From assembly GCF_001512305.1 (NCBI RefSeq), contig NZ_LNUT01000004.1, positions 363,811 to 427,810 of the forward strand: a stretch of 64,000 nt of DNA, written 5' to 3'. Position numbers and translations under genes: made by a program. Numbering within the stretch: position 1 is the first letter of the stretch; each line of letters opens with the position of its first letter. The notes under the pieces were generated by a model. It saw nothing but the letters and a program-made list of their open reading frames with translations, was not told the DNA's origin and ran no database searches. This DNA comes from Arthrobacter sp. EPSL27. GTDB taxonomy: Bacteria > Actinomycetota > Actinomycetes > Actinomycetales > Micrococcaceae. Of the stretch, positions 6,099 to 39,263 are shown piece after piece.

Positions 6099-7072
6099 GC
6101 GTCATCCCAGCCTCCGCCAACGTCGCGGTGGACGATGATCCCCGCCGCTACGAGCACCTCAGCGTCATCCGGCTCGAAGACCCGGACGCCGTGGCCCGTG
6201 CCGCCAAGGCCCGCCGCCGCCACCCCGGCGTCCAGGCCGGCAAACAGAACTTCATTGTCGCGGCCGACCACCCGGCCCGCGGCGCCCTCGCCGTCGGCAG
6301 CGACCCCGTGGCGATGGCGGACCGGCGCCTGCTCCTGGACCGGCTGCAGATTGCCCTCGCCAACCCGGACGTGGACGGCGTCCTCGCCTCACCCGACATC
6401 ATGGACGACCTGCTCCTGCTCGGAGCCCTGGACGGCAAGCTGCTCTTCGGGTCCATGAACCGGGGCGGACTCTCCGGCCTGGTCAACGAGTTCGACGACC
6501 GCTTCACAGGCCACACGGCCGCCGCGCTGGAGGCCCTCGGCGCCGACGGCGGCAAGATGCTCACCCGCATCTGCCTCGGCGACCCGGACACGGTGGGAAC
6601 CCTGGAAGCCACCGCCAAGGCGATCGATTCCCTCGCCGAGCGCAAGCTGATCGCCATGGTGGAACCGTTCCTCTCCGTCCGGGAACACGGGAAGGTCCGC
6701 AACGACCTCTCCACCAACGCCGTGATCAAGTCCATCGGCATCGCCCAGGGCCTGGGCTCCACCAGCGCCTACACCTGGATGAAGCTCCCGGTGGTGGCGG
6801 AGATGGAGCGCGTCATGGCGGCCACCACCATGCCCACCGTGCTCCTCGGCGGGGACCCGGACAGCAGCCAGGACGACGTCTTCGCCAGCTGGGAGGCGGC
6901 CCTCGCGCTGCCCGGGGTCCAGGGCCTCACGGTCGGCCGGACGCTGCTCTACCCGCACGACGGCGATGTGGCCGGCGCCGTCGCGACGGCAGCGTCGCTG
7001 CTGCACCGGTCCGCCCCGCGCACCCGCTCCACCCACACCACATCCACCCGCACCGCAGAAGTATCGGAGTAG
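6095..7072 (+). CDS. Cgl0159-type (beta/alpha)8 aldolase, inositol pathway
   Basis: The 325-residue protein starts at GTG 6095, overlapping the iolC stop by 4 bases. It resembles the Cgl0159 family of (beta/alpha)8 proteins found next to iolC in corynebacterial and arthrobacterial inositol clusters. Segments such as AGKQNFIVAADHPARG and GGDPDSSQDDVFASW are consistent with a class I aldolase-type barrel. By position it is the likely 2-deoxy-5-keto-gluconate-6-phosphate aldolase, the IolJ step, giving DHAP and malonate semialdehyde. No separate iolJ is seen. The reaction is inferred from context. Confidence 0.8.
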   Translation: MSVIPASANVAVDDDPRRYEHLSVIRLEDPDAVARAAKARRRHPGVQAGKQNFIVAADHPARGALAVGSDPVAMADRRLLLDRLQIALANPDVDGVLASPDIMDDLLLLGALDGKLLFGSMNRGGLSGLVNEFDDRFTGHTAAALEALGADGGKMLTRICLGDPDTVGTLEATAKAIDSLAERKLIAMVEPFLSVREHGKVRNDLSTNAVIKSIGIAQGLGSTSAYTWMKLPVVAEMERVMAATTMPTVLLGGDPDSSQDDVFASWEAALALPGVQGLTVGRTLLYPHDGDVAGAVATAASLLHRSAPRTRSTHTTSTRTAEVSE

Positions 7073-7078
7073 CTTCCC

Positions 7079-9040
7079 ATGGGAATGAGCACTGCACCCG
7101 GAACCCGCAGGATGACGGTCGCCCAGGCCGTCGTCGAGTACCTGTCCAAGCAGTACACCGTTGACTCGATCGGCGGCCAGGACTACCGCGAGCGGCTGAT
7201 CCCGGGCACGTTCGGGATCTTCGGCCACGGCAACGTGGCCGGCGTCGGGCAGGCCCTGAAGCAGTACCAGCAGCTGGACCCCGCCATCATGCCGTACTAC
7301 CAGGGCCGCAACGAACAGGCCCAGGCGCACCAGGCCGTCGGCTACGCCCGGCACACCCGGCGCCGCCAGACCTTCGCGGTCAGCACCTCGATCGGGCCGG
7401 GCTCCTCAAACCTGCTCACCGGCGCGGCGCTGGCCACCACCAACCGGCTGCCCGTCCTGCTGCTGCCCTCCGACACGTTCGCCACCCGGGCCGCCGACCC
7501 AGTGCTGCAGCAGCTGGAACAGCCCTACGCCTACGACATCACCGTCAACGACGCGTTCCGGCCGCTGTCCAAGTTCTTCGACCGGGTGTCCCGGCCCGAG
7601 CAGCTGTTCTCCGCGTTCCACCACGGCCTGCGCGTCCTCACGGACCCGGCCGAGACCGGTGCGGTGACCATCTCCCTGCCGCAGGACGTCCAGGCCGAGG
7701 CCTTCGACGTCCCCGAGGAGTTCCTCGCCGAACGCGAGTGGCGGATCCGCCGGCCCGACGCCGACGACGCGGACATCCGCCGTGCCGCCGAGGCGATCCG
7801 CGCCGCGAAGCGCCCGCTCATCATCGCCGGCGGCGGCGTCCTCTACGCCTACGCCAACGACGAACTGGCAAAATTCGCCGAACTGACCGGCATCCCGGTG
7901 GGCAACACCCAGGCCGGCGTCGGCGTCCTGCCGTGGGACCACAAGCTCTCCCTCGGCGCCGTCGGTTCCACCGGGACGACGGCGGCCAACGCCATCGCCG
8001 CCGGCGCGGACCTCATCATCGGCATCGGCACCCGCTACGAGGACTTCACCACCGCATCCCGCACCGCGTTCCAGAACCCGGACGTCACGTTCATCAACAT
8101 CAACGTCGCGCCGATCGACGCCTACAAGCACGGCAGCTCCCTGCCGATCGTCGCGGACGCCCGCAAGGCCCTGGTCAAGCTGAACCAGGCCCTGGGCGGC
8201 TACCGGGCCGGCGCCGACCTGGAACAGCAGATCGCCGCCGAGAAGGCCCGCTGGGACGAGACCGTGGATACGGCGTTCGACACCCGTTTCACCCCGCTGC
8301 CGGCACAGAACGAGATCATCGGCGCCACGCACCGGGCCATGGACGCCTCCGACGTGGTCATCTGCGCCGCCGGGTCCCTGCCCGGGGACCTGCACAAGAT
8401 GTGGCGCGTCCGGGACCCGTTCGGCTACCACGTCGAATACGCCTACTCCTGCATGGGCTACGAGATCCCCGGCGGCCTCGGCGTCAAGCGCGCTGCGCTG
8501 GCCGAAGCCAAGCGCGGCGGGGCCCAGCGCGACGTCGTCGTTATGGTGGGGGACGGGTCCTACCTGATGATGCACACCGAACTGGTCACCGCCGTCGCCG
8601 AACGGATCAAGCTGATCGTGGTCCTGATCCAGAACCACGGCTACGCCTCGATCGGCTCGCTCTCCGAATCCCTCGGCTCCCAGCGCTTCGGCACCCAGTA
8701 CCGCGCCCTGGACGAGGAACACCACAGCTTCGACGACGGCGAGCGGCTCCCCGTCGACCTGGCGCTGAACGCCGAAAGCCTCGGCGTGAAGGTCATCCGG
8801 ATCGAACCGGGGGAGAAGGTCATCGCCCAGCTCGAACAGGCGGTCCGGGACGCGAAGGCCGCGCCCGAACACGCCGGGCCGATCCTCATCCACGTCGAAT
8901 CCGACCCCCTGCTGGACGCCCCCAGTTCCGAGTCCTGGTGGGACGTTCCCGTCTCCGCAGTCTCCGAACTGGACTCCACGAAGCAGGCCTTCCAGACCTA
9001 CGTCGACCACAAGAGCCGCCAGCGCAAACTGCTGGGCTGA
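7079..9040 (+). CDS. iolD: 3D-(3,5/4)-trihydroxycyclohexane-1,2-dione hydrolase
   Basis: This ThDP-dependent enzyme of about 653 residues has the family's three-domain layout. The N-terminal cofactor glutamate lies in GRNEQAQAHQ, and a GDG motif at about residues 491-493 leads to QNHGY some 28 residues later, the Mg-ThDP binding signature. The length is normal for IolD, which opens the inositol ring to 5-deoxy-glucuronate. Starts at 7079 or 7085 are both possible. It follows the aldolase gene after 6 bases. Confidence 0.95.
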   Translation: MGMSTAPGTRRMTVAQAVVEYLSKQYTVDSIGGQDYRERLIPGTFGIFGHGNVAGVGQALKQYQQLDPAIMPYYQGRNEQAQAHQAVGYARHTRRRQTFAVSTSIGPGSSNLLTGAALATTNRLPVLLLPSDTFATRAADPVLQQLEQPYAYDITVNDAFRPLSKFFDRVSRPEQLFSAFHHGLRVLTDPAETGAVTISLPQDVQAEAFDVPEEFLAEREWRIRRPDADDADIRRAAEAIRAAKRPLIIAGGGVLYAYANDELAKFAELTGIPVGNTQAGVGVLPWDHKLSLGAVGSTGTTAANAIAAGADLIIGIGTRYEDFTTASRTAFQNPDVTFININVAPIDAYKHGSSLPIVADARKALVKLNQALGGYRAGADLEQQIAAEKARWDETVDTAFDTRFTPLPAQNEIIGATHRAMDASDVVICAAGSLPGDLHKMWRVRDPFGYHVEYAYSCMGYEIPGGLGVKRAALAEAKRGGAQRDVVVMVGDGSYLMMHTELVTAVAERIKLIVVLIQNHGYASIGSLSESLGSQRFGTQYRALDEEHHSFDDGERLPVDLALNAESLGVKVIRIEPGEKVIAQLEQAVRDAKAAPEHAGPILIHVESDPLLDAPSSESWWDVPVSAVSELDSTKQAFQTYVDHKSRQRKLLG

Positions 9041-9126
9041 GCCAGCCCCTCCCGCACCGCCCCTCCCGAGAACAGCCCCCGAAAACAGCCCCCGAAAACA
9101 GCCACAGACCAAGGAAGTCCCTCACC

Positions 9127-10641
9127 ATGTCAACGACGACCGTCAGCACCAAGACCATCCACCACTTCATCAACGGCGCCGAAACCGCAGGCGCCGGCAC
9201 CCGCACCCAGCCCGTCTACAACCCGGCCACCGGCGCCGTCACCGCGGAGCTGCGGCTGGCCAACCGGGCGGACCTGGACGCCACCGTGGCCGCCGCCCGC
9301 GCCGCCGCCGATTCCTGGGGCGATTTCTCCCTGGCCAAGCGCACCGCCGTGCTGTTCAAGTTCCGCGAACTGGTCGCAGCCCACGTGGACGAACTCGCCG
9401 AACTGGTCACCGCCGAACACGGCAAGGTCCTCTCCGACGCCAAGGGCGAAATCGGCCGCGGCCTCGAGGTCATCGAGTACGCCTGCGGCATCCCCACCCT
9501 GCTCAAGGGCGACTACTCGGACCAGGTCTCCACCGGGATCGATGTATTCTCCTTCCGCGAGCCGCTCGGCGTCGTCGCCGGCATCACGCCGTTCAACTTC
9601 CCGGTCATGGTGCCGCTGTGGATGGCGCCGATGGCCATCGCCACCGGCAACGCATTCATCCTCAAGCCCTCCGAGCGTGACCCGTCCGCCTCGATGCTGC
9701 TGGCCAAGCTGTGGAAGGACGCGGGCCTGCCCGACGGCGTCTTCCAGGTCCTGCACGGCGACAAGGAAACCGTGGACGGCCTCCTGACCCACCCGGACGT
9801 GGACGGCATCTCGTTCGTCGGCTCCACCCCGATCGCCCGGTACGTCCACGAGACCGCCACCGCCCACGGCAAGCGTGTCCAGGCCCTCGGCGGGGCCAAG
9901 AACCACGCAATCGTCCTGCCCGACGCCGATCTCGACAACGCCGCCGACCATCTCGCCGCCGCCGCCTTCGGCTCCGCCGGGGAACGCTGCATGGCCATCT
10001 CGGTCGCCGTCGCCGTCGGGGACGCCGCCGACCTGCTGGTCAAGAAGGTCCAGGAACGCGCCCTGGCCGTCAAGGTCAACAACGGCACCGCCCCCGGCGC
10101 CGAAATGGGCCCGGTCATCACCCCGGCCTCCAAGGAACGCATCGTGAAGATCGTCACCGAAGCCGAAGCCGCGGGGGCCGCCATGGTGGTGGACGGCCGC
10201 GACCTGGTGGTCCCCGGCCACGAGGACGGCTTCTGGGTCGGCCCCACCGTTATCGACCACGTCAAGACCGAAATGACCGCCTACAGCGAGGAAATCTTCG
10301 GACCCGTCCTCGTCGTCGTGCGGGTGGAGGACCTCGACGCCGGCATCGCCCTGATCAACTCCAACCCGTACGGCAACGGCACCGCCATCTTCACCTCCTC
10401 CGGCGCCGCCGCCCGCAAATTCCAGCGCTCCGTCACGGTCGGCATGATCGGCATCAACGTGCCGCTGCCTGTGCCCGTGGCACACCACTCCTTCGGCGGC
10501 TGGAAGGCCTCGCTCTTCGGCGACAAGCACATCTACGGCCCGGAAGGCGTCTCGTTCTACACCCGCGGTAAAGTCGTCACCTCCCGCTGGCCCGAACCCA
10601 CCCACGCCTCCGGCGCCTCCTACAACTTCCCCTCCAACTGA
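9127..10641 (+). CDS. iolA: CoA-acylating methylmalonate/malonate semialdehyde dehydrogenase
   Basis: The 504-residue aldehyde dehydrogenase has ITPFNFPVMVPLWM, typical of MmsA/IolA, and the catalytic Cys288 in GSAGERCMAIS. IolA converts malonate semialdehyde to acetyl-CoA and CO2, the last inositol step. The start at 9127 follows AAGGAAG. The frame stays open far upstream, overlapping iolD out of frame, but that part is a high-GC shadow. The spacer before it holds three short copies of a (G)AAAACAGCCCC-like unit (about 9069-9105), probably slippage. Confidence 0.95.
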   Translation: MSTTTVSTKTIHHFINGAETAGAGTRTQPVYNPATGAVTAELRLANRADLDATVAAARAAADSWGDFSLAKRTAVLFKFRELVAAHVDELAELVTAEHGKVLSDAKGEIGRGLEVIEYACGIPTLLKGDYSDQVSTGIDVFSFREPLGVVAGITPFNFPVMVPLWMAPMAIATGNAFILKPSERDPSASMLLAKLWKDAGLPDGVFQVLHGDKETVDGLLTHPDVDGISFVGSTPIARYVHETATAHGKRVQALGGAKNHAIVLPDADLDNAADHLAAAAFGSAGERCMAISVAVAVGDAADLLVKKVQERALAVKVNNGTAPGAEMGPVITPASKERIVKIVTEAEAAGAAMVVDGRDLVVPGHEDGFWVGPTVIDHVKTEMTAYSEEIFGPVLVVVRVEDLDAGIALINSNPYGNGTAIFTSSGAAARKFQRSVTVGMIGINVPLPVPVAHHSFGGWKASLFGDKHIYGPEGVSFYTRGKVVTSRWPEPTHASGASYNFPSN

Positions 10642-10661
10642 CGCCCCGACAACCAACCACG

Positions 10662-10721
10662 ATCGACTGCTCCGTACCCGCCGTTTTGAGCGTCCAAAAC
10701 GGCACCTGCGGAGCAATCGAT
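10662..10721. repeat. Nested two-tier hairpin between iolA and iolE
   Basis: The 60-base element is almost symmetric. The outer arm ATCGACTGCTCCG pairs with CGGAGCAATCGAT (one G-T/C-A difference), then 5-base internal loops, then the inner arm GCCGTTTTG pairs with CAAAACGGC around a 6-base loop. It ends directly at the ribosome binding site of iolE. It has no T-tract, so it looks more like an mRNA processing/attenuation element or a dispersed palindromic repeat than a normal terminator. Confidence 0.75.
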
Positions 10722-10735
10722 GAGAAGGAATGGAC

Positions 10736-11647
10736 ATGACTGAGAACAAGCTGATCATCGGCACCGCACCGGACTCCTGGGGCGTCTGGTTCGCGGACGA
10801 CCCGCAGCAGACCCCGTGGGAGCGTTTCCTGGACGAGGTGGCTGAATCCGGCTACAAGTGGATCGAACTGGGGCCTTACGGCTACCTGCCCTCCGACCCG
10901 GCCCGGCTGGCGGAGGAACTCAAGGCCCGCGACCTCAAGGTCACGGCCGGCACCGTGTTCACCGCGTTCCACCGCGGCGCCCACCAGTACGAGGAAGCGT
11001 GGGAACCGGCCCGCAAGGTCGCCGAACTCACGGCGGCGATGGGCGGCGAACACATCGTGGTGATCCCGGCCATGTGGCGCGACGACGTCACCGGCGAGGC
11101 GGTGGAGAGCGGCACACTCACGGACAAGGCCTGGAGCGACCTCTTCGCCGGCCACAACCGCATGGGCAAGACCCTCCTGGAGGATTTCGGTCTGAAGCAG
11201 CAGTTCCACTCGCACGCCGACTCCCACGTCGGCGCGCAGCAGGACATCGAGACCCTCCTCGCCGCCACGGACCCTCAGTACCTGAACCTGTGCCTGGACA
11301 CCGGCCACGCCGAATACTGCGGGGCGTCCAGCCTGGACCTGATCAAGAACTACCCCGACCGGATCGGCTACCTGCACTTGAAGCAGATCAACCCCGAGAT
11401 CCTGAAAAAGGTCAACGAGGAAAACATGACCTGGGCCGCCGCCAACCTGGCCGGCGTGATGACCGAACCGCCCAACGGCCTGCCGGACCTGCGCGCCGTC
11501 ATCGAGGCCGTGGAGGCGCTGGACCGGCCAATCTTTGGCATTGTGGAACAGGACATGTACCCGGTTGCCTTCGACGTCCCGATGCCGATCGCCAAGCGGA
11601 CCCGCAACTACCTGCTGTCCTGCGGCTCCCGCACCGCCGTCAACTAG
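10736..11647 (+). CDS. iolE: Myo-inosose-2 dehydratase
   Basis: The 303-residue xylose-isomerase-like TIM barrel has GTAPDSWGVWF at the start, the hallmark of IolE, followed by EVAESGYKWIELGPYGYLP. Metal ligands are expected in HSHADSHVG and LDTGHAEYCG. It removes water from 2-keto-myo-inositol to give the trione substrate of IolD. ATG 10736 is preferred over ATG 10730 because GAGAAGGA lies 6 bases away instead of touching the start. It is separated from iolA by the nested hairpin. Confidence 0.93.
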   Translation: MTENKLIIGTAPDSWGVWFADDPQQTPWERFLDEVAESGYKWIELGPYGYLPSDPARLAEELKARDLKVTAGTVFTAFHRGAHQYEEAWEPARKVAELTAAMGGEHIVVIPAMWRDDVTGEAVESGTLTDKAWSDLFAGHNRMGKTLLEDFGLKQQFHSHADSHVGAQQDIETLLAATDPQYLNLCLDTGHAEYCGASSLDLIKNYPDRIGYLHLKQINPEILKKVNEENMTWAAANLAGVMTEPPNGLPDLRAVIEAVEALDRPIFGIVEQDMYPVAFDVPMPIAKRTRNYLLSCGSRTAVN

Positions 11648-11675
11648 ACCTCACCGAGAACGAAGGACAAACACC

Positions 11676-12689
11676 ATGACCACCACCCTCCGTGTTGCCG
11701 TCATCGGCGCCGGCCGTATGGGCGCCGACCACATCCAGCGTCTCAATACCCGCATCCACGGCGCGGAAGTTGCCGCCGTCGTCGACGTCGACCTGGCCCG
11801 CGCGCAGGCCGCCATCGAAGGCATCCCGGGCGCCGTCGCCCTGGCGGACGCCGACGAGGCGCTGGGCAACGGCGACGTCAACGCCGTCCTGATCGCCACC
11901 CCCGGCTTCCTGCACGAGGACATCCTGCTCAAGGCGATCGCCAAGGACATCCCGATTCTCTGCGAGAAGCCGCTCACGCCGGACGCCGCCTCAGCCTGGA
12001 AGATCGTCCAGGCCGAGGAGCAGCTGGGCCATAAGCGCATCCAGGTCGGCTTTATGCGCCGCTTCGACGCTGAATACGCCGCCCTGGGCGACATCATCCG
12101 GAGCTCCGAACTCGGTGAACTGCTGATGCTGCACCACCAGCACCGCAACCCGAACACCCCGGCCGGCTTCACCAACGAGATGCTCATCAACGACTCCGTG
12201 GTCCACGAATTCGACGCCATCCGGTTCTTCACCGGCGAGGAGATCACGTCGGTCCAGGTCCGCCTCGGCAAGGCCACGAAGAACGCCCCGGCCGGCCAGC
12301 ATGACCCGCAGCACGTCCTGATCGAAACCGAATCCGGGGTCCTGGCCGACGTCGAGATCTTCGTCAACGCCAAGTTCGGCTACGAAGTGGCCACCCAGGC
12401 CTCCTTCGAGGACGGCATCGTCAACATCGGCGGCGACACGGGCCCCTACACCCGCTCTGCCGGCCGCTGGGGCGGCAATGTCACCCCCGGCTTCGAGGAG
12501 CGTTTCGGCGCAGCGTACGACGTCGAAATCCAGTCGTGGGTGGACGCCGCGCTTCGCGGCGAAATCGGCGGCCCCACCGCGTGGGACGGGTACGCCACGG
12601 CTGCCTGCTGCGAGGCCGGGGTTGAGGCGCAGAAGAACGGCGAAAAGGTCGCCGTGAAGCTGAACGCCAAGCCCGCGCTCTACCGCTAA
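11676..12689 (+). CDS. iolG: Inositol 2-dehydrogenase (Gfo/Idh/MocA)
   Basis: The 337-residue oxidoreductase has an N-terminal Rossmann fold (GAGRMG at residues 9-14), the EKPL motif, and the GFMRRFD segment typical of inositol dehydrogenases. It should oxidise myo-inositol to 2-keto-myo-inositol with NAD+. ATG 11676 follows GAAGGA; the open frame upstream overlaps iolE and is ignored. A GC-rich hairpin follows the stop. Confidence 0.93.
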   Translation: MTTTLRVAVIGAGRMGADHIQRLNTRIHGAEVAAVVDVDLARAQAAIEGIPGAVALADADEALGNGDVNAVLIATPGFLHEDILLKAIAKDIPILCEKPLTPDAASAWKIVQAEEQLGHKRIQVGFMRRFDAEYAALGDIIRSSELGELLMLHHQHRNPNTPAGFTNEMLINDSVVHEFDAIRFFTGEEITSVQVRLGKATKNAPAGQHDPQHVLIETESGVLADVEIFVNAKFGYEVATQASFEDGIVNIGGDTGPYTRSAGRWGGNVTPGFEERFGAAYDVEIQSWVDAALRGEIGGPTAWDGYATAACCEAGVEAQKNGEKVAVKLNAKPALYR

Positions 12690-12695
12690 GGCGGC

Positions 12696-12726
12696 CGGGA
12701 GGGGGCCACGGCCCCCTCCCGCATTT
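12696..12726 (+). terminator. Hairpin after iolG, possible partial terminator
   Basis: CGGGAGGGGGCC pairs with GGCCCCCTCCCG around a tiny loop, followed by CATTTG. The T-tract is weak. iolH and the porter follow on the same strand, so this may only reduce downstream transcription. Confidence 0.55.
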
Positions 12727-12773
12727 GCCGGTGCCACGCACAACCCGACTGATCCACAATGGAGTGTTCCGAA

Positions 12774-13649
12774 GTGAAAATCGCACTTGATCCCACGCCG
12801 TTCCACCACTCGCACAGCCTGCTTGAATTCCCGCGGGTGGTGGCGGACCTTGGCTACAAGTACATGCAGATGACCCCGCACGCCGACTTCATCCCGTTCT
12901 ACAACCACCCGAAGGCAGACGACGAGCTGGTGGGCCAGCTCAAGGCGGCCTGCAAGGACGCCGGGATCGAAATTGCCTCGGTCCTGCCGGTGCTGCGCTG
13001 GTCCGGGCCGGACGAGGACGCCCGCGAGGCAGCCGTCCGCTACTGGAAGCGTGCCATCCAGATCGCCGTGGACCTCGGTGTCAGCACCATGAACACGGAA
13101 TTCAGCGGCCGCCCGGAAAAGGCCGAGGAATCGGAGCGCGCCTTCTACCGCTCCATGGAAGAGCTGCTGCCCATCATCGAACGCGAGGGCATCGACCTGC
13201 TGATCGATCCGCACCCGGACGACTTCGTCGAAGAGGGCCTGGCCGCCATCAGGGTGATCCGCGGCCTCAACTCCAAAAACGTGGGCCTGGTCTACGTGGC
13301 CTCGCACAGCTTCCACATGAAGGACGCACCCCTGGAGATCATGCGGGCCGCAGGGGACAAGCTGCGCCTGGTCCACGTCGCGGACACCATGAACCATCAC
13401 GCCTCGCACGGGCTGCGCTACATCACCAACCCGCCCGGCAACCCGGTGCGGGTGCACCAGCACCTGAAAATCGGCGACGGCGACGTCAACTGGGAGGAGT
13501 TCTTCGGCGGCCTCCGCGAGATCGGGTTCCTCGACCGCGAGGACACCGTGATGGTCTCCAGCGTCTTCGCCGAGGACGAGAACGCCGCCGAGGTCTCCCG
13601 CTACCAGCTGGACACGATCAGGCAGCACATCCAGAAGGCCACCGTATGA
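12774..13649 (+). CDS. iolH: IolH-like sugar phosphate isomerase/epimerase
   Basis: The 291-residue TIM barrel of the xylose isomerase-like superfamily starts MKIALDPTPFHHSHSLLEFP, the usual IolH opening. Metal-ligand candidates lie in IDPHPDDF, SHSFHMKD and VHVADTMNHH. Its exact reaction in inositol catabolism is not settled in the family. The GTG at 12774 follows GGAG by 9 bases; ATG 12759 is in frame but has no ribosome binding site. Its stop overlaps the porter start by 4 bases. Confidence 0.88.
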   Translation: MKIALDPTPFHHSHSLLEFPRVVADLGYKYMQMTPHADFIPFYNHPKADDELVGQLKAACKDAGIEIASVLPVLRWSGPDEDAREAAVRYWKRAIQIAVDLGVSTMNTEFSGRPEKAEESERAFYRSMEELLPIIEREGIDLLIDPHPDDFVEEGLAAIRVIRGLNSKNVGLVYVASHSFHMKDAPLEIMRAAGDKLRLVHVADTMNHHASHGLRYITNPPGNPVRVHQHLKIGDGDVNWEEFFGGLREIGFLDREDTVMVSSVFAEDENAAEVSRYQLDTIRQHIQKATV

Positions 13650-15064
13650 CGACGGCAACCGCCCAGCAGCGGAAGGCGCCCGCCAACCACAAGAAGGCAC
13701 TGCGCACCGCCACCATCATCTCCACCTTCGGCGGCCTGCTCTTCGGATACGACACCGGCGTCATCAACGGCGCCCTGCCGTACATGCAGGAGGACCTGGG
13801 GCTGACGCCGCTCACGGAAGGGCTGGTGACCTCCTCGCTGCTCTTCGGTGCCGCCTTCGGCGCCCTGTTCGGCGGGCGCCTCGCGGACCGCAACGGGCGG
13901 CGCCGGATGATCATGGTGCTCGCCGTGATCTTCCTGCTCGGCACCCTGGCCTGCACGTTCGCGCCGAACACTGAAGTCATGATCCTGGCCCGGTTCGTCC
14001 TGGGCCTCGCCGTCGGCGGGGCGTCCGTCACCGTGCCCGTCTACCTCGCCGAAGTCTCGCCGAGCACCCGGCGCGGCCGGATCGTCACCCAGAACGAGCT
14101 GATGATCGTCACCGGCCAGCTGCTGGCCTTCATCTTCAACGCCTACCTCGGCAACACCTTCGGTGAATCCGGCGGGATCTGGCGCTGGATGCTGGTCATC
14201 GCCACCCTCCCGGCGATCGCCCTCTGGATCGGCATGCACTTTATGCCCGAAAGCCCGCGGTGGCTGGCCTCGATGGGCAGCTTCGGCGAAACCCTCAGCG
14301 TGCTGCAGCGGATCCGCTCGCAGTCCGAGGCCCGGGCCGAGTTCGAGGAAGTCAAGGCCATGGCCGTGGAGGACTACAAGTCCAAAATGGGCTCCTGGCG
14401 CGACCTCAGCGTGCCCTGGCTGCGCCGCATCTTCGTGGTGGGGATCGGCCTGGCGGTCATCCAGCAGATCACGGGCGTGAACTCGATCATGTACTACGGC
14501 ACCCAGATCCTGGCGGAGTCCGGCTTCGGCCGGGAAGCCGCCCTGACGGCGAACATCGCCAACGGCGTCATCTCGGTCCTCGCCACGTTCGTGGGGATCT
14601 GGCTGCTGGGCAGGGTGGGCCGGCGCAGGATGCTGATCACCGGCCAGATCGGCACGACGGCGGCGCTGCTGCTGATCGGGTTGTTCTCGCTGGTCCTGCC
14701 CGAAGGCACCGCCCGCGGCTTCGTGATCCTGGCCCTGACGGTGACGTTCCTGGCATTCCAGCAGGGCGCCATCTCCCCGGTGACCTGGCTGATGCTGTCC
14801 GAGATCTTCCCGCTGAAAATCCGGGGCCTCGGCATGGGCGCCTCAGCCTTTGTGCTGTGGACGGTGAACTTCCTAGTGGGTTTCGGCTTCCCGCAGCTCC
14901 TCGCGGCGATCGGCCTGTCCAGCACCTTCTTCGTCTTTGCCGTGCTGGGCGTCGGCGCCATCGCATTCGCCGCGAAATACATCCCGGAAACCAAGGACAA
15001 GAGCCTGGAAGACCTGGAGCACCACTTCAAGCAGCTGGCTGCCAAAGAACCAGCCGCCGGCTAG
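13646..15064 (+). CDS. MFS sugar porter, inositol uptake (IolT-like)
   Basis: The 472-residue protein has 12 predicted membrane segments and the sugar porter signatures: FGYDTGVINGALP in TM1, GRLADRNGRRRM after TM2, PESPRWL after TM6 and PETKDKSLEDLE after TM12. The gene ends the inositol operon and is translationally coupled to iolH, so proton-driven myo-inositol uptake (IolT type) is the best inference. The true substrate is not proven by the sequence. Confidence 0.88.
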   Translation: MTTATAQQRKAPANHKKALRTATIISTFGGLLFGYDTGVINGALPYMQEDLGLTPLTEGLVTSSLLFGAAFGALFGGRLADRNGRRRMIMVLAVIFLLGTLACTFAPNTEVMILARFVLGLAVGGASVTVPVYLAEVSPSTRRGRIVTQNELMIVTGQLLAFIFNAYLGNTFGESGGIWRWMLVIATLPAIALWIGMHFMPESPRWLASMGSFGETLSVLQRIRSQSEARAEFEEVKAMAVEDYKSKMGSWRDLSVPWLRRIFVVGIGLAVIQQITGVNSIMYYGTQILAESGFGREAALTANIANGVISVLATFVGIWLLGRVGRRRMLITGQIGTTAALLLIGLFSLVLPEGTARGFVILALTVTFLAFQQGAISPVTWLMLSEIFPLKIRGLGMGASAFVLWTVNFLVGFGFPQLLAAIGLSSTFFVFAVLGVGAIAFAAKYIPETKDKSLEDLEHHFKQLAAKEPAAG

Positions 15065-32851: not shown

Positions 32852-32916
32852 GTCAGGACCCCTAGTGGGTCAGGACCTCTAATGGGTCAGGACCTCTAAT
32901 GGGTTAGGACAGGGGC
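32852..32916. repeat. 17-bp tandem repeat at the symporter 3' end
   Basis: GTCAGGACC(C/T)CTA(A/G)TGG occurs at 32852, 32869 and 32886, with a partial fourth copy at 32903. On the minus strand each copy reads GTCCTGACCCATTAG or close to it, repeating the last codons (VLTH) and stop of the symporter. Confidence 0.85.
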
Positions 32917-34419
32917 CTGTTCCTCTTCGGCGGCGCCGCCGGCCACCCTGCGGCGCCAGTTGGCCATGACCGCGGGGTCTGTCGGCTTGGTCAGCAGGGA
33001 CACGGCAATGTAGACCGCCGCGGACGCCAGCAGGCCGTAGTAGATCGGCTCGTTGGCGTAGATGCCGTCCAGCGGGACCTCGGCGTTGATCTCCAGAATG
33101 ATCATGGTGCCGAGGGTGATGACCGAACCCACCGCCATGGAGGCGGCTGCGGCGGCACCGGTGCCGCGCTTCCAGACCAGCCCGCCGAGGATGGCGACGA
33201 GGAGCCCGCCCACCAGGATGTCGTAGGCGATGGTGAGGGCCGCCACCACGTCTTGCGTGACGATGGCGATGACGATCGCGACGATGCCGAGCCCCAGGAC
33301 CCACATGCGGTTGGCGCGGACGTCGTGCTCCGGGTTGTCCGTGTCATCGGTGTTGATGTTTTTGCCGAACCAGCTGGCGACGAACGGCAGGACGTCGGCG
33401 CGGGCCACGGTGGCTGCGGCGATCAGGGCGCCGGACGCCGTGGACATCATGGCGGCGACGGCGGCGGCGAGCACCAGGCCGCCGATGCCGATGGGCAGCA
33501 GGTTGGTGGCAACCTCCGCGTAGACAACGTCCTTGCCGAGGGCCTTGACGTCGATGTCCGGCAGCGCGACGCGGGCGCCGAGGCCGATCAGTGCGCCGGC
33601 GGCACCGTAGAGGATGCAGTAGATGCCGGCGGTGGCGCCGCCCCAGCGGGCAACCGCGGGGGTCTTGGCGGTGAAGACGCGCTGCCAGATGTCCTGGCCG
33701 ATCAGCAGGCCCAGGGTGTAGACGACGAAGTAGGTGATGATCGTCTGGACGCCGATGCCGTCGATCTGGAAGAAGCTGGCGTCCACCCGTTCGCGGATGC
33801 CTTCGAAGCCGCCGGCGGCGTTGAGCGTGAACGGCAGCATCAGCAGGAAGATGCCGACGGTCTTGATCACGAACTGGACCTGGTCGGCGAGGGTGATGGA
33901 CCACATGCCGCCGATGGTCGAGTAGACCAGGACGATCGCGCCGCCGACGGCGATGGCGACCGCGCGGTCCCAGCCGAAGAGGACCACGAAGATGGTGGCG
34001 TAGGCGCCCGTTGAGGTGGCGCAGAGCATCAGCGTGTAGGCCAGCATGACGATGCCGGAGGTCTGGGTGGCGCGGCTGCCGTAGCGCAGGCTCAGCATCT
34101 GGGACACCGTGTAGATCTTGAGCTTTTGGATGGTGCCGGCGAAGAGCAGGCTGAGCAGCAGCACGCCGGCGCCGATGGCGACCACCAGCCACATGCCGGA
34201 GATGCCGAACTTGTAGCCCAGTCCGACGCCGCCGACGGTGGAGGCGCCACCGAGCACGACGGCGGCCATGGTGCCGGTGTAGAGGAACGGGCCGAGGCGG
34301 CGGCCGGCCACCAGGAAGTCGCTGTTGTTCTTGGTGCGGGATTTGCCCCACCAGCCGAAGGCCAACATGGCGATCAGATACACCACCACTATGGCGATGT
34401 TGACGAAACTTGCGTCCAT
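32896..34419 (-). CDS. Sodium:solute symporter (SSS family)
   Basis: The 507-residue protein has about 13 membrane segments and starts MDASFVNIAIVVVYLIAMLAFGWWG, with FLVAGRRLGPF typical of SSS proteins and a C-terminal Ala/Glu-rich tail. Its start lies in a 304-base region shared with a divergent XRE-cupin regulator. The neighbours (agmatinase-family enzyme, ThDP decarboxylase) suggest import of a nitrogenous compound such as arginine or a guanidino acid. The substrate is inferred only. Confidence 0.9.
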   Translation of the reverse strand: MDASFVNIAIVVVYLIAMLAFGWWGKSRTKNNSDFLVAGRRLGPFLYTGTMAAVVLGGASTVGGVGLGYKFGISGMWLVVAIGAGVLLLSLLFAGTIQKLKIYTVSQMLSLRYGSRATQTSGIVMLAYTLMLCATSTGAYATIFVVLFGWDRAVAIAVGGAIVLVYSTIGGMWSITLADQVQFVIKTVGIFLLMLPFTLNAAGGFEGIRERVDASFFQIDGIGVQTIITYFVVYTLGLLIGQDIWQRVFTAKTPAVARWGGATAGIYCILYGAAGALIGLGARVALPDIDVKALGKDVVYAEVATNLLPIGIGGLVLAAAVAAMMSTASGALIAAATVARADVLPFVASWFGKNINTDDTDNPEHDVRANRMWVLGLGIVAIVIAIVTQDVVAALTIAYDILVGGLLVAILGGLVWKRGTGAAAAASMAVGSVITLGTMIILEINAEVPLDGIYANEPIYYGLLASAAVYIAVSLLTKPTDPAVMANWRRRVAGGAAEEEQAPVLTH

Positions 34420-34723
34420 TTAGGGCTCCTCAGAGCGGTTCGGAGCACGGCTGACCAGCCGGTGACCAGATGGCAACCGGGGCCAGGTGCTTCTTGACGG
34501 GTACGGTGACGGATTGCCGGCGGATAGACCCGGGGTCGGGACGGCTCCGTGTTTTGGCGGTGATTGCCCATTAGGCAACAGTTGTTGCCACACAGTATGT
34601 TGTGATCCGAGTAACAGTCAAGACGCATTACGCGTCGCGGGCGGATCAGGCGTGCCGGGGATGCGGCCGCGTCTAGTATTGCTCCAACAATGGGGCCAAG
34701 CGCCGGCCGGGAAAGGTTCCTAC
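34420..34723. promoter_or_regulatory. Divergent control region, symporter and XRE regulator
   Basis: No gene is supported. TTGCC-CATTA-GGCAA (34564-34578) and the overlapping palindrome GGCAAC-AGTT-GTTGCC (34574-34589) form a compound operator-like site, followed by CACAGTATGTTGTG. A similar TTGCC-TTA-GGCAA occurs before the marR gene at 39411. Confidence 0.55.
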
Positions 34724-35299
34724 ATGAAGGCTCTACCAGTTGAACCGAGCAACGTTCCTGTTGCGATCGGTTCCCGGATCCGCGCCGCGCGGCAGTCCCA
34801 GCGGCTCACCATCGAGCAGGTTGCCGACGCCACCGGGCTGACCAAGGGGTTCCTCAGCCGCGTGGAGCGCGACCTCACCTCGCCCTCGGTGGCGTCCCTG
34901 GTGACGCTGTGCCAGGTGCTCTCCATCTCGATCGGCGATCTCTTTGCCGCCCCGGAAACCCATCTGACCAAGAAAAACGAAGGGCCGCGGATCTCGCTCG
35001 GCGGCGAGGGGATTGTGGAGCGGCTGCTGACCGCACGGTCGGAACGCCGGGTGCAGATCATCCAGGCCGTGATCGAGCCCCGCGGCCGCGGCGAATCGGA
35101 GCTGTACGCGGTGGACTGCGACGTCGATGTGCTGCACGTGGTCCGGGGCAGCATCCGGCTCATCCTCACCAATGAGGAGTTCGAGCTGCACACGGGCGAC
35201 ACCGTAACCTTCCCCGGCCGCGAGCCGCACACCTGGGTCAACCCGACGGATGACGCCGTTGAGGTCCTCTGGGTCCTGGTGCCCGCCGCGAGCCGGTAG
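34724..35299 (+). CDS. XRE-family regulator with cupin domain
   Basis: The 191-residue protein has an N-terminal helix-turn-helix (IGSRIRAARQSQRLTIEQVA, then TKGFLSRVERDLTSPSVASL) and a C-terminal cupin with DVLHVVRGSIRLIL and FPGREPHTWVNPT. This PuuR-like layout is common in regulators of polyamine and amino-acid catabolism. ATG 34724 follows GAAAGG. It is likely to control the divergent symporter and perhaps the agmatinase operon 1.2 kb downstream. Confidence 0.9.
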   Translation: MKALPVEPSNVPVAIGSRIRAARQSQRLTIEQVADATGLTKGFLSRVERDLTSPSVASLVTLCQVLSISIGDLFAAPETHLTKKNEGPRISLGGEGIVERLLTARSERRVQIIQAVIEPRGRGESELYAVDCDVDVLHVVRGSIRLILTNEEFELHTGDTVTFPGREPHTWVNPTDDAVEVLWVLVPAASR

Positions 35300-35313
35300 C
35301 TTCCCCGCCTGTG

Positions 35314-36135
35314 TCAGGCGGCGGCGCGGCGGCCCAGCGCGGCGCGGATCTCGGCCACGACGCGCTCGGGCTCAAACCAGATGTGCTCCGGCATGTAATG
35401 GAGCGAGGCAAAACCGCCCAATGTTGAGGCGTTGTTCCGGTTCAGGTCCCGGCGCATGTCCGCCCGGCGGGAGTGGAATGCGAAGCCGTCCACCTCCACG
35501 ATCAGGAACCCTTCGAGCAGGAAGTCCACCCGGCCGATCCCCGGCAGGTAAACCTGGGCGTCGTAGCCGATCCCGTTGGCGCGGAAGAGGTGCTGGGCAT
35601 CGACCTCCACGATGGATTCGGCCCGGAGGTCCAGTTCGTGCAGTGCCTTGCGGACCCGGCCGGACCGGTCGGCGGTCAGCTGGTCCTTCAACAATGCCAG
35701 CGGGACGCCGTGCAGGCGCAGGGCCGACGTCGCGATGGCCGTCGACGCCGGGGGAGCGAGGCAGGTCATGGCGTGCAGCACCACGTCCTCGACTGCGGCC
35801 ACGGGCAGCGCCGGATGGGGCGCGAACCGGACCGTCCGGTGGCGGATGAAGCCGCTGCCGTGGCCGTGGTTGCAGGCCAGATGGTGCTGCGCCGGAGGTC
35901 TGCGGAGCCACAGGCCGTAAGTCTCTGCCGCGCTGGCACAGCTGACCCGGGCGTTGCAGAGAATTGCCGCTTCGAACTCGGGGCGGCACCCCGGAACGGC
36001 GAACACGCCGCGCCGGGGCTGGCGGACCCCGGAGGCCACCAGGTGGCTGAGGTCCGTCCGGGAGTAGCCCGCGGCCAACAATTGCCCGGTCCGGGCGACG
36101 CCGCCCACGTGCCTGAGGTAGTCCGCGATGTCCAT
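35314..36135 (-). CDS. DUF559/AbiEi-like domain protein
   Basis: The 273-residue protein starts MDIADYLRHVGGVARTGQLL, a winged-helix region as in the AbiEi antitoxin N-terminus, and ends with a DUF559 domain of the PD-(D/E)xK type (GRVDFLLEGFLIVEVDGFAFH, then RRADMRRDLNRNN). Such proteins are frequent as singletons in actinobacteria; no partner toxin gene is seen here. An in-frame start nine codons upstream (36162) is possible. Confidence 0.75.
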   Translation of the reverse strand: MDIADYLRHVGGVARTGQLLAAGYSRTDLSHLVASGVRQPRRGVFAVPGCRPEFEAAILCNARVSCASAAETYGLWLRRPPAQHHLACNHGHGSGFIRHRTVRFAPHPALPVAAVEDVVLHAMTCLAPPASTAIATSALRLHGVPLALLKDQLTADRSGRVRKALHELDLRAESIVEVDAQHLFRANGIGYDAQVYLPGIGRVDFLLEGFLIVEVDGFAFHSRRADMRRDLNRNNASTLGGFASLHYMPEHIWFEPERVVAEIRAALGRRAAA

Positions 36136-36232
36136 GACACCAGTACAGGTCGCCCCGGACACCCGCGAAACCGGCCATCAGTGCTATCTGGATAAACGGG
36201 CTATCTGGATAACTGGCATCGACGGCGGGCGG

Positions 36233-36346
36233 CGCTCCTGCCCAGTTACCGGCCGCGGCGCCACGTCCGCCGGCCGCGCAACCTTGGATTCCCGCGATTT
36301 GTCCCGGCCCGGCCGCGGTGCGCGGGCCAGTAACTGGGCAGGAGCG
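36233..36346. repeat. 17-bp inverted repeat, 80-bp spacer
   Basis: CGCTCCTGCCCAGTTAC (36233-36249) is the exact reverse complement of GTAACTGGGCAGGAGCG (36330-36346). The GC-rich spacer carries further partial complementarity (CCGGCCGCGG units). No target-site duplication is evident. Confidence 0.75.
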
Positions 36347-36405
36347 TACGACTGCGGGGATCGCCGCCTCCCGGCGTCCGCGCAGGTCAGCGAGAAGTAA
36401 ACATT

Positions 36406-36437
36406 TGATGCGCATCAGGCAACTTCGAGTGTATGAT
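36406..36437 (+). promoter_or_regulatory. Agmatinase promoter with TGATGC-GCATCA palindrome
   Basis: TGATGCGCATCA (36406-36417) is a perfect 12-base palindrome, and TATGAT at 36432-36437 is a good -10 box. If transcription starts near 36443, the ATG codons at 36433 and 36436 fall outside the mRNA, which supports the TTG start at 36481. Confidence 0.55.
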
Positions 36438-36480
36438 GGCTGTCACACCCGTCGGTCAGTCCTTGAAGGAGAGGCTTCTT

Positions 36481-37587
36481 TTGGAAGAGCTGCGCATCGA
36501 GGCCAATGGCAACCTTGGCCCCATCGATTCATCCCGCATCCCGCGCTACGCCGGAGCCGCCACCTATGCCCGCCTGCCACGGCTGGACCAGGTCGCCAAG
36601 GCCGACGTCACAGTGGTGGGCGTCCCCTTCGACTCCGGCGTCTCCTACCGCCCCGGAGCCCGCTTCGGCTCCAACCACATCCGTGAGGCCAGCCGCCTGC
36701 TCCGCCCGTACAACCCGGCTTGGGACGTCAGCCCCTTCGAAAATATCCAGGTGGCCGACGCCGGCGACATGGCCGTCAATCCCTTCCACATCAACGAAGC
36801 GATCGAGACCATCCAGCAGAACGCGCTGGACCTGACCGCCTCCGGCAGCAAGCTGCTGACCCTCGGCGGCGACCACACCATCGCCCTGCCGCTTCTCCGC
36901 GCCGCCGCGGAACGCGCCGGTGAGCCCGTCGCCATGCTGCACTTCGACGCGCACCTGGACACCTGGGACACCTACTTCGGTGCGGAGTACACCCACGGCA
37001 CCCCGTTCCGCCGCGCAGTCGAGGAAGGCATCCTCGACACCGAGGCCATCAGCCACATCGGGACCCGCGGCCCGCTCTACGGCAAAAAGGACCTCGACGA
37101 CGACCACCGCTTCGGCTTCGGCATTGTCACCTCCGCCGACGTCTACTACCAGGGCGTGCTTGAAACCGTCGCCAAGGTCCGCGACCGGATCGGCAACCGT
37201 CCGCTCTACATCTCGGTGGACATCGACGTGCTGGATCCCGCGCACGCGCCCGGCACCGGTACCCCGGAAGCCGGCGGCATCACCAGCCGCGAACTGCTGG
37301 AAATCATCCGCGGCTTCCGCGGCATGAACCTGGTGGGGGCCGACGTCGTCGAGGTCGCCCCGGCCTACGACCACGCGGACATCACCGGCGTCGCCGCCAG
37401 CCACGTGGCCTATGAACTGGTGACCCTCATGGCGGACAGCGCCGTCGACGGCGACCGCTTCGGCGCCGCCAACGGATACGCCGCACAGGCCCTCGGCCAG
37501 GAAACCCGGCGCCCTGCCGGCTTCGAGGCTCCCACGGCCCGCGTGGAAAGCAATGCCCAGCGCGTGGAAACCGGGGTCTCCCGATGA
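36481..37587 (+). CDS. Agmatinase-family ureohydrolase, possible guanidinobutyrase
   Basis: The 368-residue enzyme has all the manganese-ligand motifs of the arginase/agmatinase family: [15 protein letters not shown] and [19 protein letters not shown]. Family members release urea from arginine, agmatine or guanidino acids. The next gene encodes a ThDP decarboxylase, which fits 4-guanidinobutyrate as substrate (GbuA role). I choose the TTG at 36481, six bases after AAGGAGAGG; ATG 36433 has no ribosome binding site. It overlaps the next gene by 4 bases. Confidence 0.88.
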
Positions 37588-39263
37588 CCGGCGTACGCAA
37601 CGGCGGCGACCTCGTCGTCGAGACCCTCGAAGCCCTCGGTGCCAAGACCGTCTTCGGCATCCCGGGCCAGCACGCCCTGGGCCTCTTTGACGCCATGGGC
37701 CGCGGAAACCTGCACTTCGTGTCCTCCCGGGTGGAGAACAACTCCGCCTTCGCCGCGGACGGCTACTCCCGCGCCACCGGAGAAGTGGGTGTCCTCTTCC
37801 TCTCCACCGGCCCCGGCGCGCTGACGTCGCTGGCCGGGCTGCAGGAGGCCTACGCCACCGGCGTTCCGATGGTGGTGGTGGCCAGCCAGATCCCGCTCGA
37901 AGGACTCGGTGCGCGCCGCAAGGGCATGCTGCACCAGCTCGATGACCAGAAGGCCTCGGCCGCGAACGTCACCAAGAGCCAGCGGCTGATCCAGCACGCC
38001 TCCGGCATCCCCTCGGCCATCCAGGACGCCTGGACCGAGGCCATCTCCTCGCCGCAGGGCCCCGTCTGGCTGGAAATCCCGCAGAACGTCCTGCTGGACC
38101 CCATCATGGTGCCCCCGGTGGAGGACGCCCTCGCCGAGGCTGCCGACAACCCGCCGCGCGTCGAACTGGTCCGCGAGGCCGTGAGATGGCTGGCGACGGC
38201 GGAACGCCCCGCCATCATCGCCGGTGGCGGCACGCGCCGCGGCCGGGCCGAGAAGTCGCTGCTCTCCATCGCGGAGAAGCTGCGGGCCCCGGTCATCTGC
38301 ACCCCCGGCGGCAACGGCGCGTTCCCGTGGAACCACGAACTCTCGCTGCAGTCCTGGATCGAGGACCAGTACATGACGGAGGTGCTCGAGGACGCCGACG
38401 TGCTGATCGTGATCGGCTCCTCCCTCGGTGAAGTCACCTCCAACTACTTCACCTTCGAGCCGCGCGGCAGGATCATCCAGATCGACGCCGAACCCCGGGT
38501 GCTGGAGTCCAACCGCCCCGGCCTGGGGATCAGGGCCGACGCCGGGCAGGCCCTCGCCGCGCTCGACGCGGCCCTGACAGAGCCGCACGCCGAGCGTGCC
38601 GACTGGCACGGCACCCCACCCGAGGCCTTGGTCAAGGAAACCCTGGCCAAGGTCAAGGCCCGGCTGGAATCCCAGGACCTTGGCAAGGAGCTGAAGTTCA
38701 TGGCGGACATCCGGGAAGCCGTGCCCGCCACCATGCAGACGTTCTGGGACATGACCATTTCCGCCTACTGGGGCTGGAGCTGCTGGGACGCCCGCGAGGG
38801 ACAGTTCCACTCCGCCCAGGGCGCCGGCGGACTCGGCTTCGGCTTCCCCGCGGCGATCGGTGGCGCCGTCGGCCTGGAAACAACCGGCCACGATGCAGCC
38901 GGCAAGTCCGGGGGATCGTCCCGGGTGCTCGCAGTCTCCGGCGACGGCTCGGCGATGTACTCCATCTCTGAACTGGCCACCGCGAAACAGCACAATGTTC
39001 CGGTGACCTGGCTGATTGTGGACGACGGCGGCTACGGCATCCTGCGCGAATACATGGTGGGCGCCTTCGGCAAGGCCACCGCCACCGAGCTCGCGCGCCC
39101 GGACTTCGTCAAGCTGGCCGAGGCCTTCGGGGTTCCGGCCGTCCGGGTCGCCCCCGAGGATGTAGGGGACGCGCTCCGCGCCGGGTTCGCCGCGGACGGA
39201 CCGAACGTCGTCGTCGTAGAAACCCTGCTCAAGATGTTCGCCCCCACCCATCTGGAGGCCTGA
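37584..39263 (+). CDS. ThDP-dependent decarboxylase, AruI-like candidate
   Basis: The 559-residue enzyme belongs to the acetolactate synthase/benzoylformate decarboxylase superfamily. It has the cofactor glutamate in [10 protein letters not shown], a TPP_enzyme_M middle domain ([14 protein letters not shown]) and the GDGSAM motif ending VDDGGYG, where Asp replaces the usual Asn. It is coupled to the agmatinase-family gene. In the arginine transaminase pathway AruI decarboxylates 2-ketoarginine to 4-guanidinobutyraldehyde; context suggests that reaction. Another 2-keto acid is possible. Confidence 0.82.

What the first reader, a model, noticed from the sequence alone, without database searches (positions are those of the whole stretch)
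32896..39263. Possible arginine transaminase-type pathway module
A sodium symporter, XRE-cupin regulator, agmatinase-family enzyme and ThDP decarboxylase lie together, the last two coupled by 4 bases. This matches 2-ketoarginine decarboxylation (AruI) and guanidinobutyrate hydrolysis (GbuA), a route mostly described in Pseudomonas. The aldehyde dehydrogenase and transaminase would be elsewhere.
Basis: partly seen in the sequence, partly recalled or inferred. Interest (0 to 1): 0.55.

Follow-up and report, generated by a model that had tools for sequence, protein, structure and literature searches.

The report
Guanidino-acid breakdown cassette in Arthrobacter
A transporter, a urea-releasing enzyme and a thiamine-dependent enzyme that stay together in soil actinobacteria probably break down arginine-derived compounds, but both enzymes are cousins of the known Pseudomonas enzymes rather than members of their families, so their exact substrates must be tested.

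Summary
The genes are real and placed as described: SSF symporter (-), XRE-cupin regulator (+), arginase-family hydrolase (+, TTG start 36481) and ThDP enzyme (+) sharing ATGA at 37584-37587. An AbiEi/DUF559-like ORF (35314-36126, -) was overlooked. Hydrolase and ThDP gene are adjacent in 80 of 80 kept Micrococcaceae loci. In 4 of 7 loci of large unnamed actinomycetes SSF, hydrolase and ThDP gene lie in a row. The hydrolase keeps all metal ligands and the Arg that caps the substrate carboxylate in GbuA, so guanidino acids fit better than agmatine; it lies outside the GbuA clade. The ThDP enzyme misses the AruI model (312 of 500 bits) and the PRK08266 model (337 of 571), and forms its own clade. 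GbuA-clade speB does sit beside AruI and an aldehyde dehydrogenase in Roseateles and Paraburkholderia, so the module idea has precedent, with other subfamilies and an extra gene. The arginine-transaminase reading is plausible as function, not met as strict family membership. Most likely it is a guanidino-acid cassette feeding GABA plus urea; whether hydrolysis or decarboxylation comes first is open. No gene for making 2-ketoarginine was identified.

The parts
32896..34419 (-). Sodium:solute symporter (SSF), putative importer of a guanidino compound or related amino acid
   Evidence: PF00474 109 bits; ortholog 54-56% directly before the hydrolase in 4 of 7 large-actinomycete loci; divergent to the regulator in 68 of 80 loci; weak best solved relative is a choline transporter
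34564..34589 (.). Overlapping inverted repeats (TTGCCCATTAGGCAA and GGCAACAGTTGTTGCC), likely operator of the regulator
   Evidence: perfect GGCAAC-N4-GTTGCC in 22 of 69 relatives' intergenic regions; in the genome this site plus one 2-mismatch site
34724..35299 (+). XRE-cupin (PuuR-like) transcriptional regulator
   Evidence: HTH_3 and Cupin_2; PuuR model 60 bits, far below its cut-off 211
35314..36126 (-). AbiEi-antitoxin/DUF559-like ORF, intervening and probably unrelated
   Evidence: PF13338 25.8 and PF04480 22.5 bits, just over cut-off; in 24 of 80 loci
36397..36439 (+). Conserved promoter-like element of the enzyme pair, unlike the regulator's operator
   Evidence: GTATGATG upstream in 64 of 81 sequences
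36481..37587 (+). Arginase-family guanidino-acid hydrolase (368 aa, TTG start)
   Evidence: metal ligands H132 D156 H158 D160 D247 D249, Arg75, Tyr165
37584..39263 (+). ThDP-dependent enzyme, probably 2-oxo-acid decarboxylase (559 aa), unassigned subfamily beside AruI and PRK08266
   Evidence: E51, GDG 453-455

Best explanation
The symporter brings in a guanidino compound or a precursor; the arginase-family enzyme cuts the guanidino group to urea, and the ThDP enzyme decarboxylates the 2-oxo acid, both acting on the 2-ketoarginine skeleton (5-guanidino-2-oxopentanoate). Either order leads, through 4-aminobutanal or 4-guanidinobutyrate, to GABA and urea; a urease in the genome can use the urea. 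Shown: gene order, domains, metal-ligand and carboxylate-cap residues, conservation of the pair. Inferred: substrate, order of steps, transport substrate, and a dehydrogenase and a 2-ketoarginine-forming enzyme acting from elsewhere.
For: Pair adjacent in 80 of 80 kept loci, and in 9 of the 10 surveyed genomes whose hydrolase is at least 70% identical; SSF-hydrolase-ThDP in a row in 4 of 7 loci. Arg75 in the hydrolase as in GbuA and GpuA, Ala in both solved agmatinases; R72 of GbuA caps the active site on the carboxylate side (PMC9772407, passages). GbuA-clade speB beside AruI and ALDH in Roseateles and Paraburkholderia. A near-AruI ThDP (476 of 500 bits) directly precedes a relative of this hydrolase (63-69%) in 3 of 25 fetched loci of another family of the order. 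S. meliloti SpeB2 hydrolyses 2-ketoarginine, guanidinobutyraldehyde and guanidinobutyrate, and the AruI homologue IlvB1 is sevenfold more active on 5-amino-2-oxopentanoate (PMC7268258), so two enzymes suffice without an ALDH between them. This hydrolase is the genome's only arginase-family gene besides hutG; urease alpha present.
Against: ThDP enzyme only 28-33% identical to AruI-clade and 29-30% to PRK08266 proteins and outside both clades. None of 89 stretches with the ThDP gene (window 23001-49000, 80 loci, L104-L110, L119) gave a match to the ALDH, aminotransferase or amine-oxidase references used (few references, stretches up to 26 kb), and no good AspC-type transaminase was found in the genome. 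Near-AruI enzymes of the other family lie beside an Amidohydro_3 gene in 5 of the 8 loci whose flank proteins were scanned, so AruI resemblance does not fix the substrate. The hydrolase also occurs without the ThDP gene (G171; Nonomuraea L117, where an ALDH lies about 3 kb on).
Confidence: 0.45

Rival explanations
1. The hydrolase is a 4-guanidinobutyrase (or broad guanidino-acid hydrolase) for imported or otherwise made guanidino acids, while the ThDP enzyme handles a different 2-oxo acid or does a carboligation.
For: Nearly the same active-site loop ([14 protein letters not shown]...THGTPFRRA) occurs in Tsukamurella speB, which lies beside a flavin amine oxidase and a C-N hydrolase, the layout expected for the arginine 2-monooxygenase route to 4-guanidinobutyrate (pathway recalled); Embleya has hydrolase and ThDP gene at separate places; hydrolase without ThDP in Nonomuraea and G171.
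Against: No full-length relative of that amine oxidase in the window genome (best partial match 30 bits); strict pairing with the ThDP gene in two lineages argues for one shared pathway.
Confidence: 0.28
2. The cassette degrades another guanidino 2-oxo acid or natural guanidino compound, not arginine-derived 2-ketoarginine.
For: Different regulators (XRE-cupin, PucR-like) and carriers (SSF, NCS1, amino-acid permease) go with these enzymes; the ThDP subfamily is unassigned; its nearer outgroup L091 lies beside an LldD-like hydroxyacid dehydrogenase and a PuuC-like ALDH.
Against: No positive candidate substrate.
Confidence: 0.17
3. Ordinary agmatinase (as annotated) next to an acetolactate-synthase paralogue.
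For: TIGR01230 agmatinase score 222.7 over cut-off 174.3 and PRK02190 313 over 302; public annotation 'agmatinase'.
Against: Arg75 instead of Ala; the two solved agmatinases form their own clade; a human protein annotated as agmatinase proved to be a guanidino-acid hydrolase (PMC9772407, passages); ThDP enzyme below the cut-off of each acetolactate synthase model listed (best 25 of 52 families shown).
Confidence: 0.07
4. A clavulanate-type pair: carboxyethylarginine synthase plus proclavaminate amidinohydrolase.
For: Third-best solved relative of the hydrolase is proclavaminate amidino hydrolase, 249 bits.
Against: That enzyme has His, not Arg, at the cap position; no chain named carboxyethylarginine synthase among the 60 shown of 150 solved relatives of the ThDP enzyme (the other 90 not seen); the next genes downstream are a MarR regulator and an MFS carrier.
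Confidence: 0.03

Closest known systems
Pseudomonas aeruginosa arginine transaminase route: AruI (5-guanidino-2-oxopentanoate decarboxylase) and GbuA (guanidinobutyrase)
   Same: ThDP enzyme plus arginase-family guanidino-acid hydrolase; GbuA is the best solved relative (43% identity)
   Different: Both enzymes in separate clades from AruI-type and GbuA-type proteins (P. aeruginosa AruI itself was not in hand); no ALDH partner; Tyr for Met161; pair overlaps by 4 bases with an SSF carrier near
speB-AruI-ALDH operons of Roseateles sp. XES5 (L220) and Paraburkholderia sp. PGU19 (L218)
   Same: Hydrolase and ThDP gene in one short row
   Different: AruI by annotation (L220) or 73% identity to an AruI (L218); hydrolases in the GbuA clade (L220 71% to GbuA); ALDH included
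S. meliloti AspC-IlvB1 / SpeB2 network (PMC7268258)
   Same: Hydrolase and decarboxylase able to act on 2-ketoarginine and its hydrolysis product
   Different: Transaminase-ThDP pairing (as in L125, L145), not hydrolase-ThDP; PRK08266-type enzyme in those loci
Arthrobacter sp. KUJ 8602 Zn guanidinobutyrase / D-arginase (Arakawa 2003, cited in PMC11271267)
   Same: Same genus group, same enzyme family and possibly the same gene
   Different: Sequence not held here; identity not tested

Membership tests
AruI, 5-guanidino-2-oxopentanoate decarboxylase (NF005712/PRK07524) | Score over the curated cut-off (500 bits) | tested here: not met
   312.3 bits; positive controls L122 596.6, L124 870.4, L183 528.9
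AruI, 5-guanidino-2-oxopentanoate decarboxylase (NF005712/PRK07524) | Placement in the AruI clade | tested here: not met
   Own clade of 14 rows 100/100, stem 0.73 (36 rows, midpoint root)
AruI, 5-guanidino-2-oxopentanoate decarboxylase (NF005712/PRK07524) | ThDP domains, ThDP glutamate, GDG motif | tested here: met
   E51, G453-D454-G455 invariant in 18 close rows; role of E51 recalled
AruI, 5-guanidino-2-oxopentanoate decarboxylase (NF005712/PRK07524) | Activity on 2-ketoarginine | not testable with these tools
   Needs assay
PRK08266 / IlvB1-like ThDP enzymes (NF006122) | Score over cut-off (571 bits) | tested here: not met
   336.6 bits; positive controls L125 885.9, L126 708.7
GbuA, 4-guanidinobutyrase | Six metal-ligand residues of the arginase family | tested here: met
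   H132, D156, H158, D160, D247, D249; their role recalled
GbuA, 4-guanidinobutyrase | Arg capping the carboxylate (R72) | tested here: met
   R75; Arg in 28 of 32 rows, His in 2, Ala in the 2 agmatinases
GbuA, 4-guanidinobutyrase | Met161 at the recognition position | tested here: not met
   Tyr165, as in GpuA; but A. niger guanidinobutyrase also has Tyr (PMC10833137, passage)
GbuA, 4-guanidinobutyrase | Placement with GbuA in a tree | tested here: not met
   GbuA clade of 6 rows 100/100 excludes it
GbuA, 4-guanidinobutyrase | Hydrolysis of 4-guanidinobutyrate | not testable with these tools
   Needs assay
Agmatinase (TIGR01230) | Score over cut-off (174.3 bits) | tested here: met
   222.7 bits; the model gives no separation from guanidino-acid hydrolases by my reading
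Agmatinase (TIGR01230) | Grouping with solved agmatinases | tested here: not met
   4dz4 and 7lol form their own clade 100/99
Arginine transaminase pathway module | Linked or present enzyme making 2-ketoarginine, and a guanidinobutyraldehyde dehydrogenase | tested here: inconclusive
   None linked with the references used; AspC-type best 29% E 1e-5; 16 ALDH matches in the genome, best 38%

The most novel reading that the evidence does not exclude
A urea-first arginine route: the hydrolase acts on 2-ketoarginine itself and an unassigned ThDP subfamily decarboxylates the resulting 5-amino-2-oxopentanoate to 4-aminobutanal, bypassing 4-guanidinobutyrate, as a dedicated two-enzyme cassette spread through Arthrobacter and large-genome actinomycetes.
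Probability: 0.2. Interest if true: 0.5.

Novelty: new variant of a known kind. Interest (0 to 1): 0.3.

Why it matters
The pair is annotated 'agmatinase' and 'thiamine pyrophosphate-binding protein' in the public record seen, in a common group of soil bacteria. If the reading holds, it corrects an agmatinase call, gives a function to an unassigned ThDP subfamily, and shows how Arthrobacter and relatives turn arginine-type nitrogen into GABA and urea. It also yields two simple assays.

Tried and rejected
Structure prediction of the ThDP enzyme from 18 close relatives gave mean pLDDT 52.8 and pTM 0.37, so no fold search was run.

Operator search to find a regulon: only the known site (read on both strands) plus one 2-mismatch site; control counts were 4 and 5, so that extra site means nothing. 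The hydrolase promoter lacks the motif, so control of the pair by this regulator is not shown. In the window the pattern with 3 mismatches gave 2 matches against 3.2 expected.

P. aeruginosa comparison: I recall PA1417 as a ThDP decarboxylase and PA1418 as an SSF symporter near gbuA (PA1421). No call confirms these identities. PMC12607905 (passages) lists gbuA, PA1420, PA1419, PA1418, PA1417 and PA1416 all lowered in a mexT mutant, which fits one operon. PMC8844440, PMC11419262, PMC6403454 and PMC5145850 (passages) gave only PA14 locus-tag coincidences; PMC9397018 (passages) nothing specific.

Considered and rejected: plain agmatinase plus acetolactate synthase; clavulanate-type pair; the AbiEi/DUF559 ORF as a cassette member (24 of 80 loci); regulator and hydrolase as one transcript in general (distance over 2 kb in 30 of 72 loci).

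Paper searches listed no paper whose title or abstract start points to this cassette (open-licence library only; listings, not full reading). Two Pseudomonas papers were not held.

Full report
WHAT IS THERE. The window lies in a 4.18 Mb, 8-contig genome of Arthrobacter type (closest loci Arthrobacter and Pseudarthrobacter, 95-96% in the ThDP protein). The four genes are intact and carry the expected domains. Hydrolase stop and ThDP start share ATGA at 37584-37587. The hydrolase most likely starts at TTG 36481 behind AAGGAGAGG; upstream lies a conserved element GTAAACA..TGATGC...GTATGATGG (36397-36439), with GTATGATG in 64 of 81 upstream sequences. An AbiEi/DUF559-like ORF on the other strand separates the regulator from the enzyme pair.

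CONSERVATION. The search for related loci kept 80 loci, the best of 320 confirmed. Hydrolase and ThDP gene are adjacent in 80 of 80, the divergent SSF/regulator pair is seen in 68 of 80 (some loci are cut short), and the regulator-hydrolase distance exceeds 2 kb in 30 of 72, where other genes such as a permease-like gene or an ammonium-channel-like gene have come between (named by eye). These loci share wider synteny, so they count as one lineage. In an even draw of 296 genomes of the phylum, 21 have a ThDP match at E 1e-60 or better, 9 of them orthologs by my reading: two of the window's genus and seven large genomes (7.8-9.9 Mb) of one genus of the same class, probably Streptomyces (the name is inference). 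In these 9 the hydrolase lies beside it (coordinates). The hydrolase is wider: 51 of 296 at E 1e-70. Ten reach 70% identity; 9 of these have the ThDP ortholog and one (G171) does not. In the large genomes an SSF ortholog (54-56%) precedes the hydrolase in 4 of 7 loci (gene picking was heuristic, so the other three are not shown to lack it). A PmfR/CdaR-like, i.e. PucR-type, regulator lies there in L104, with relatives in L108 and L110. Only the even draw was examined, not all held genomes.

HYDROLASE. Best solved relatives: GbuA 277 bits, GpuA 268, proclavaminate amidinohydrolase 249, agmatinases 237 and lower. All six metal ligands are present. Position 75 is Arg, as in GbuA (R72) and GpuA; the two solved agmatinases have Ala. 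R72 is described as capping the active site of the neighbouring subunit and able to meet the substrate carboxylate (PMC9772407, passages). Position 165 is Tyr as in GpuA, not Met as in GbuA; but the A. niger guanidinobutyrase has Tyr there too (PMC10833137, passages), so this does not decide chain length. In a 32-row tree the window enzyme falls with actinobacterial proteins, away from the GbuA clade (100/100) and from the two agmatinases. Neighbours of these relatives suggest guanidino acids: Tsukamurella (64%) has a flavin amine oxidase and C-N hydrolase beside it, the layout expected for the arginine 2-monooxygenase route to 4-guanidinobutyrate (pathway recalled); Rubrobacter (49%) has methylmalonate-semialdehyde dehydrogenase, alanine dehydrogenase and an aminotransferase, as for beta-alanine from 3-guanidinopropionate (inference). 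Against the agmatinase reading stand residues and tree; for it stand the agmatinase models, both over cut-off. The genome's only other arginase-family gene is hutG (267 bits, cut-off 229). Urease alpha is present (954 bits).

ThDP ENZYME. All three ThDP domains are present. It is closest to PRK08266 (337 of 571 bits) and AruI (312 of 500), below both cut-offs. Controls score well: AruI proteins 597, 870 and 529, PRK08266 proteins 886 and 709. In a 36-row tree its clade (Micrococcaceae, the large actinomycetes, Embleya) has full support and a long stem, apart from AruI and PRK08266. Identity is 28-33% to five AruI-clade proteins so named or annotated and 29-30% to the two PRK08266 proteins beside transaminases. 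So it is neither by membership. A nearer outgroup (L091) lies beside an LldD-like 2-hydroxyacid dehydrogenase and a PuuC-like aldehyde dehydrogenase, each below its model's cut-off, which fits 2-oxo-acid decarboxylation. The structure prediction failed.

PRECEDENT FOR THE MODULE. Roseateles sp. XES5 has speB (71% to GbuA), an annotated 5-guanidino-2-oxopentanoate decarboxylase and an ALDH in a row. Paraburkholderia sp. PGU19 has AruI (73% to the Caballeronia one), ALDH and speB in a row. Three Caballeronia loci have AruI overlapped by four bases with ALDH. Two Rhizobium loci have an aminotransferase before a PRK08266-type ThDP gene, the layout of S. meliloti aspC-ilvB1 (PMC7268258, section 11; that IlvB1 is of this type is inference from layout). 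G075 has AruI, an ELFV amino-acid dehydrogenase and an ALDH together. In another family of the same order, 3 of 25 fetched near-AruI loci have a relative of the window hydrolase (63-69%) directly after the ThDP gene, and a fourth (L213) has a distant one (32%, cut by the edge) before a weak XRE-cupin match. Other speB relatives looked at, such as L219, L221, L222, L223 and L224, have no ThDP gene annotated nearby. Against the reading, 5 of the 8 near-AruI loci whose flank proteins were scanned (10 proteins; 25 loci fetched) have an Amidohydro_3 gene beside the ThDP gene, so the subfamily is not confined to arginine.

HOW IT PROBABLY WORKS. PMC7268258 reports that S. meliloti SpeB2 hydrolyses 2-ketoarginine, 4-guanidinobutyraldehyde and 4-guanidinobutyrate, and that IlvB1 is sevenfold more active on 5-amino-2-oxopentanoate. 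Hydrolase and decarboxylase can thus act in sequence on the same skeleton with no ALDH between them, which would explain why only these two enzymes stay coupled: none of 89 stretches with the ThDP gene matched the ALDH, transaminase or oxidase references used, while those references found ALDHs in four of five control loci. This is an inference by analogy; the order is open. The SSF carrier's substrate is unknown; its best solved relative, weakly, is a choline transporter (56 bits). Missing parts: no good AspC-type transaminase (29%, E 1e-5), only partial matches to the Tsukamurella amine oxidase (best 30 bits), 16 ALDH candidates with best 38%.

REGULATION. TTGCCCATTAGGCAACAGTTGTTGCC (34564-34589) lies between SSF and regulator. 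The second repeat is perfect in 22 of 69 relatives; a pattern search of the genome found this site and one 2-mismatch site, with control counts of 4 and 5. The enzyme pair has a different conserved promoter, so the regulator's control of the pair is unproven.

VERDICT. Observation confirmed; interpretation plausible as function, not met as family membership; a new variant of a known kind, moderately interesting.

Noticed in passing
L225 (Neorhizobium galegae pHAMBI1141b), 1-13201: speB lies in a run with cytochrome P450, ferredoxin-like protein, FAD oxidoreductase, alcohol and aldehyde dehydrogenases, aminotransferase, AtuA and an APC permease in a nodule symbiont of Galega officinalis: possibly a catabolic cluster for the host's prenylguanidine galegine (host chemistry recalled).
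   Followed up: no
L113 (Arthrobacter sp. NicSoilB11 55 kb plasmid), 1-14521: ThDP gene, MarR regulator and MFS transporter occur twice as inverted copies with identical protein accessions around one SSF, cupin regulator and speB: a large inverted duplication or an assembly artefact.
   Followed up: no
36397-36439: Strongly conserved promoter-like element before the hydrolase (GTAAACA..TGATGC...GTATGATGG), unlike the SSF/regulator operator; the factor that reads it is unknown.
   Followed up: partly
L195, L197, L199, L200, L201: Near-AruI ThDP genes beside an Amidohydro_3 hydrolase in another family of the order: a second hydrolase-ThDP pairing of unknown substrate.
   Followed up: partly
L008:4997-6430: An ammonium-channel-like gene (named by eye) stands directly before the hydrolase in this relative, a hint of nitrogen use.
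   Followed up: no
L117:11719-13149: In Nonomuraea, whose hydrolase has no ThDP gene beside it, an aldehyde dehydrogenase (43% to the L111 one) lies about 3 kb downstream.
   Followed up: no
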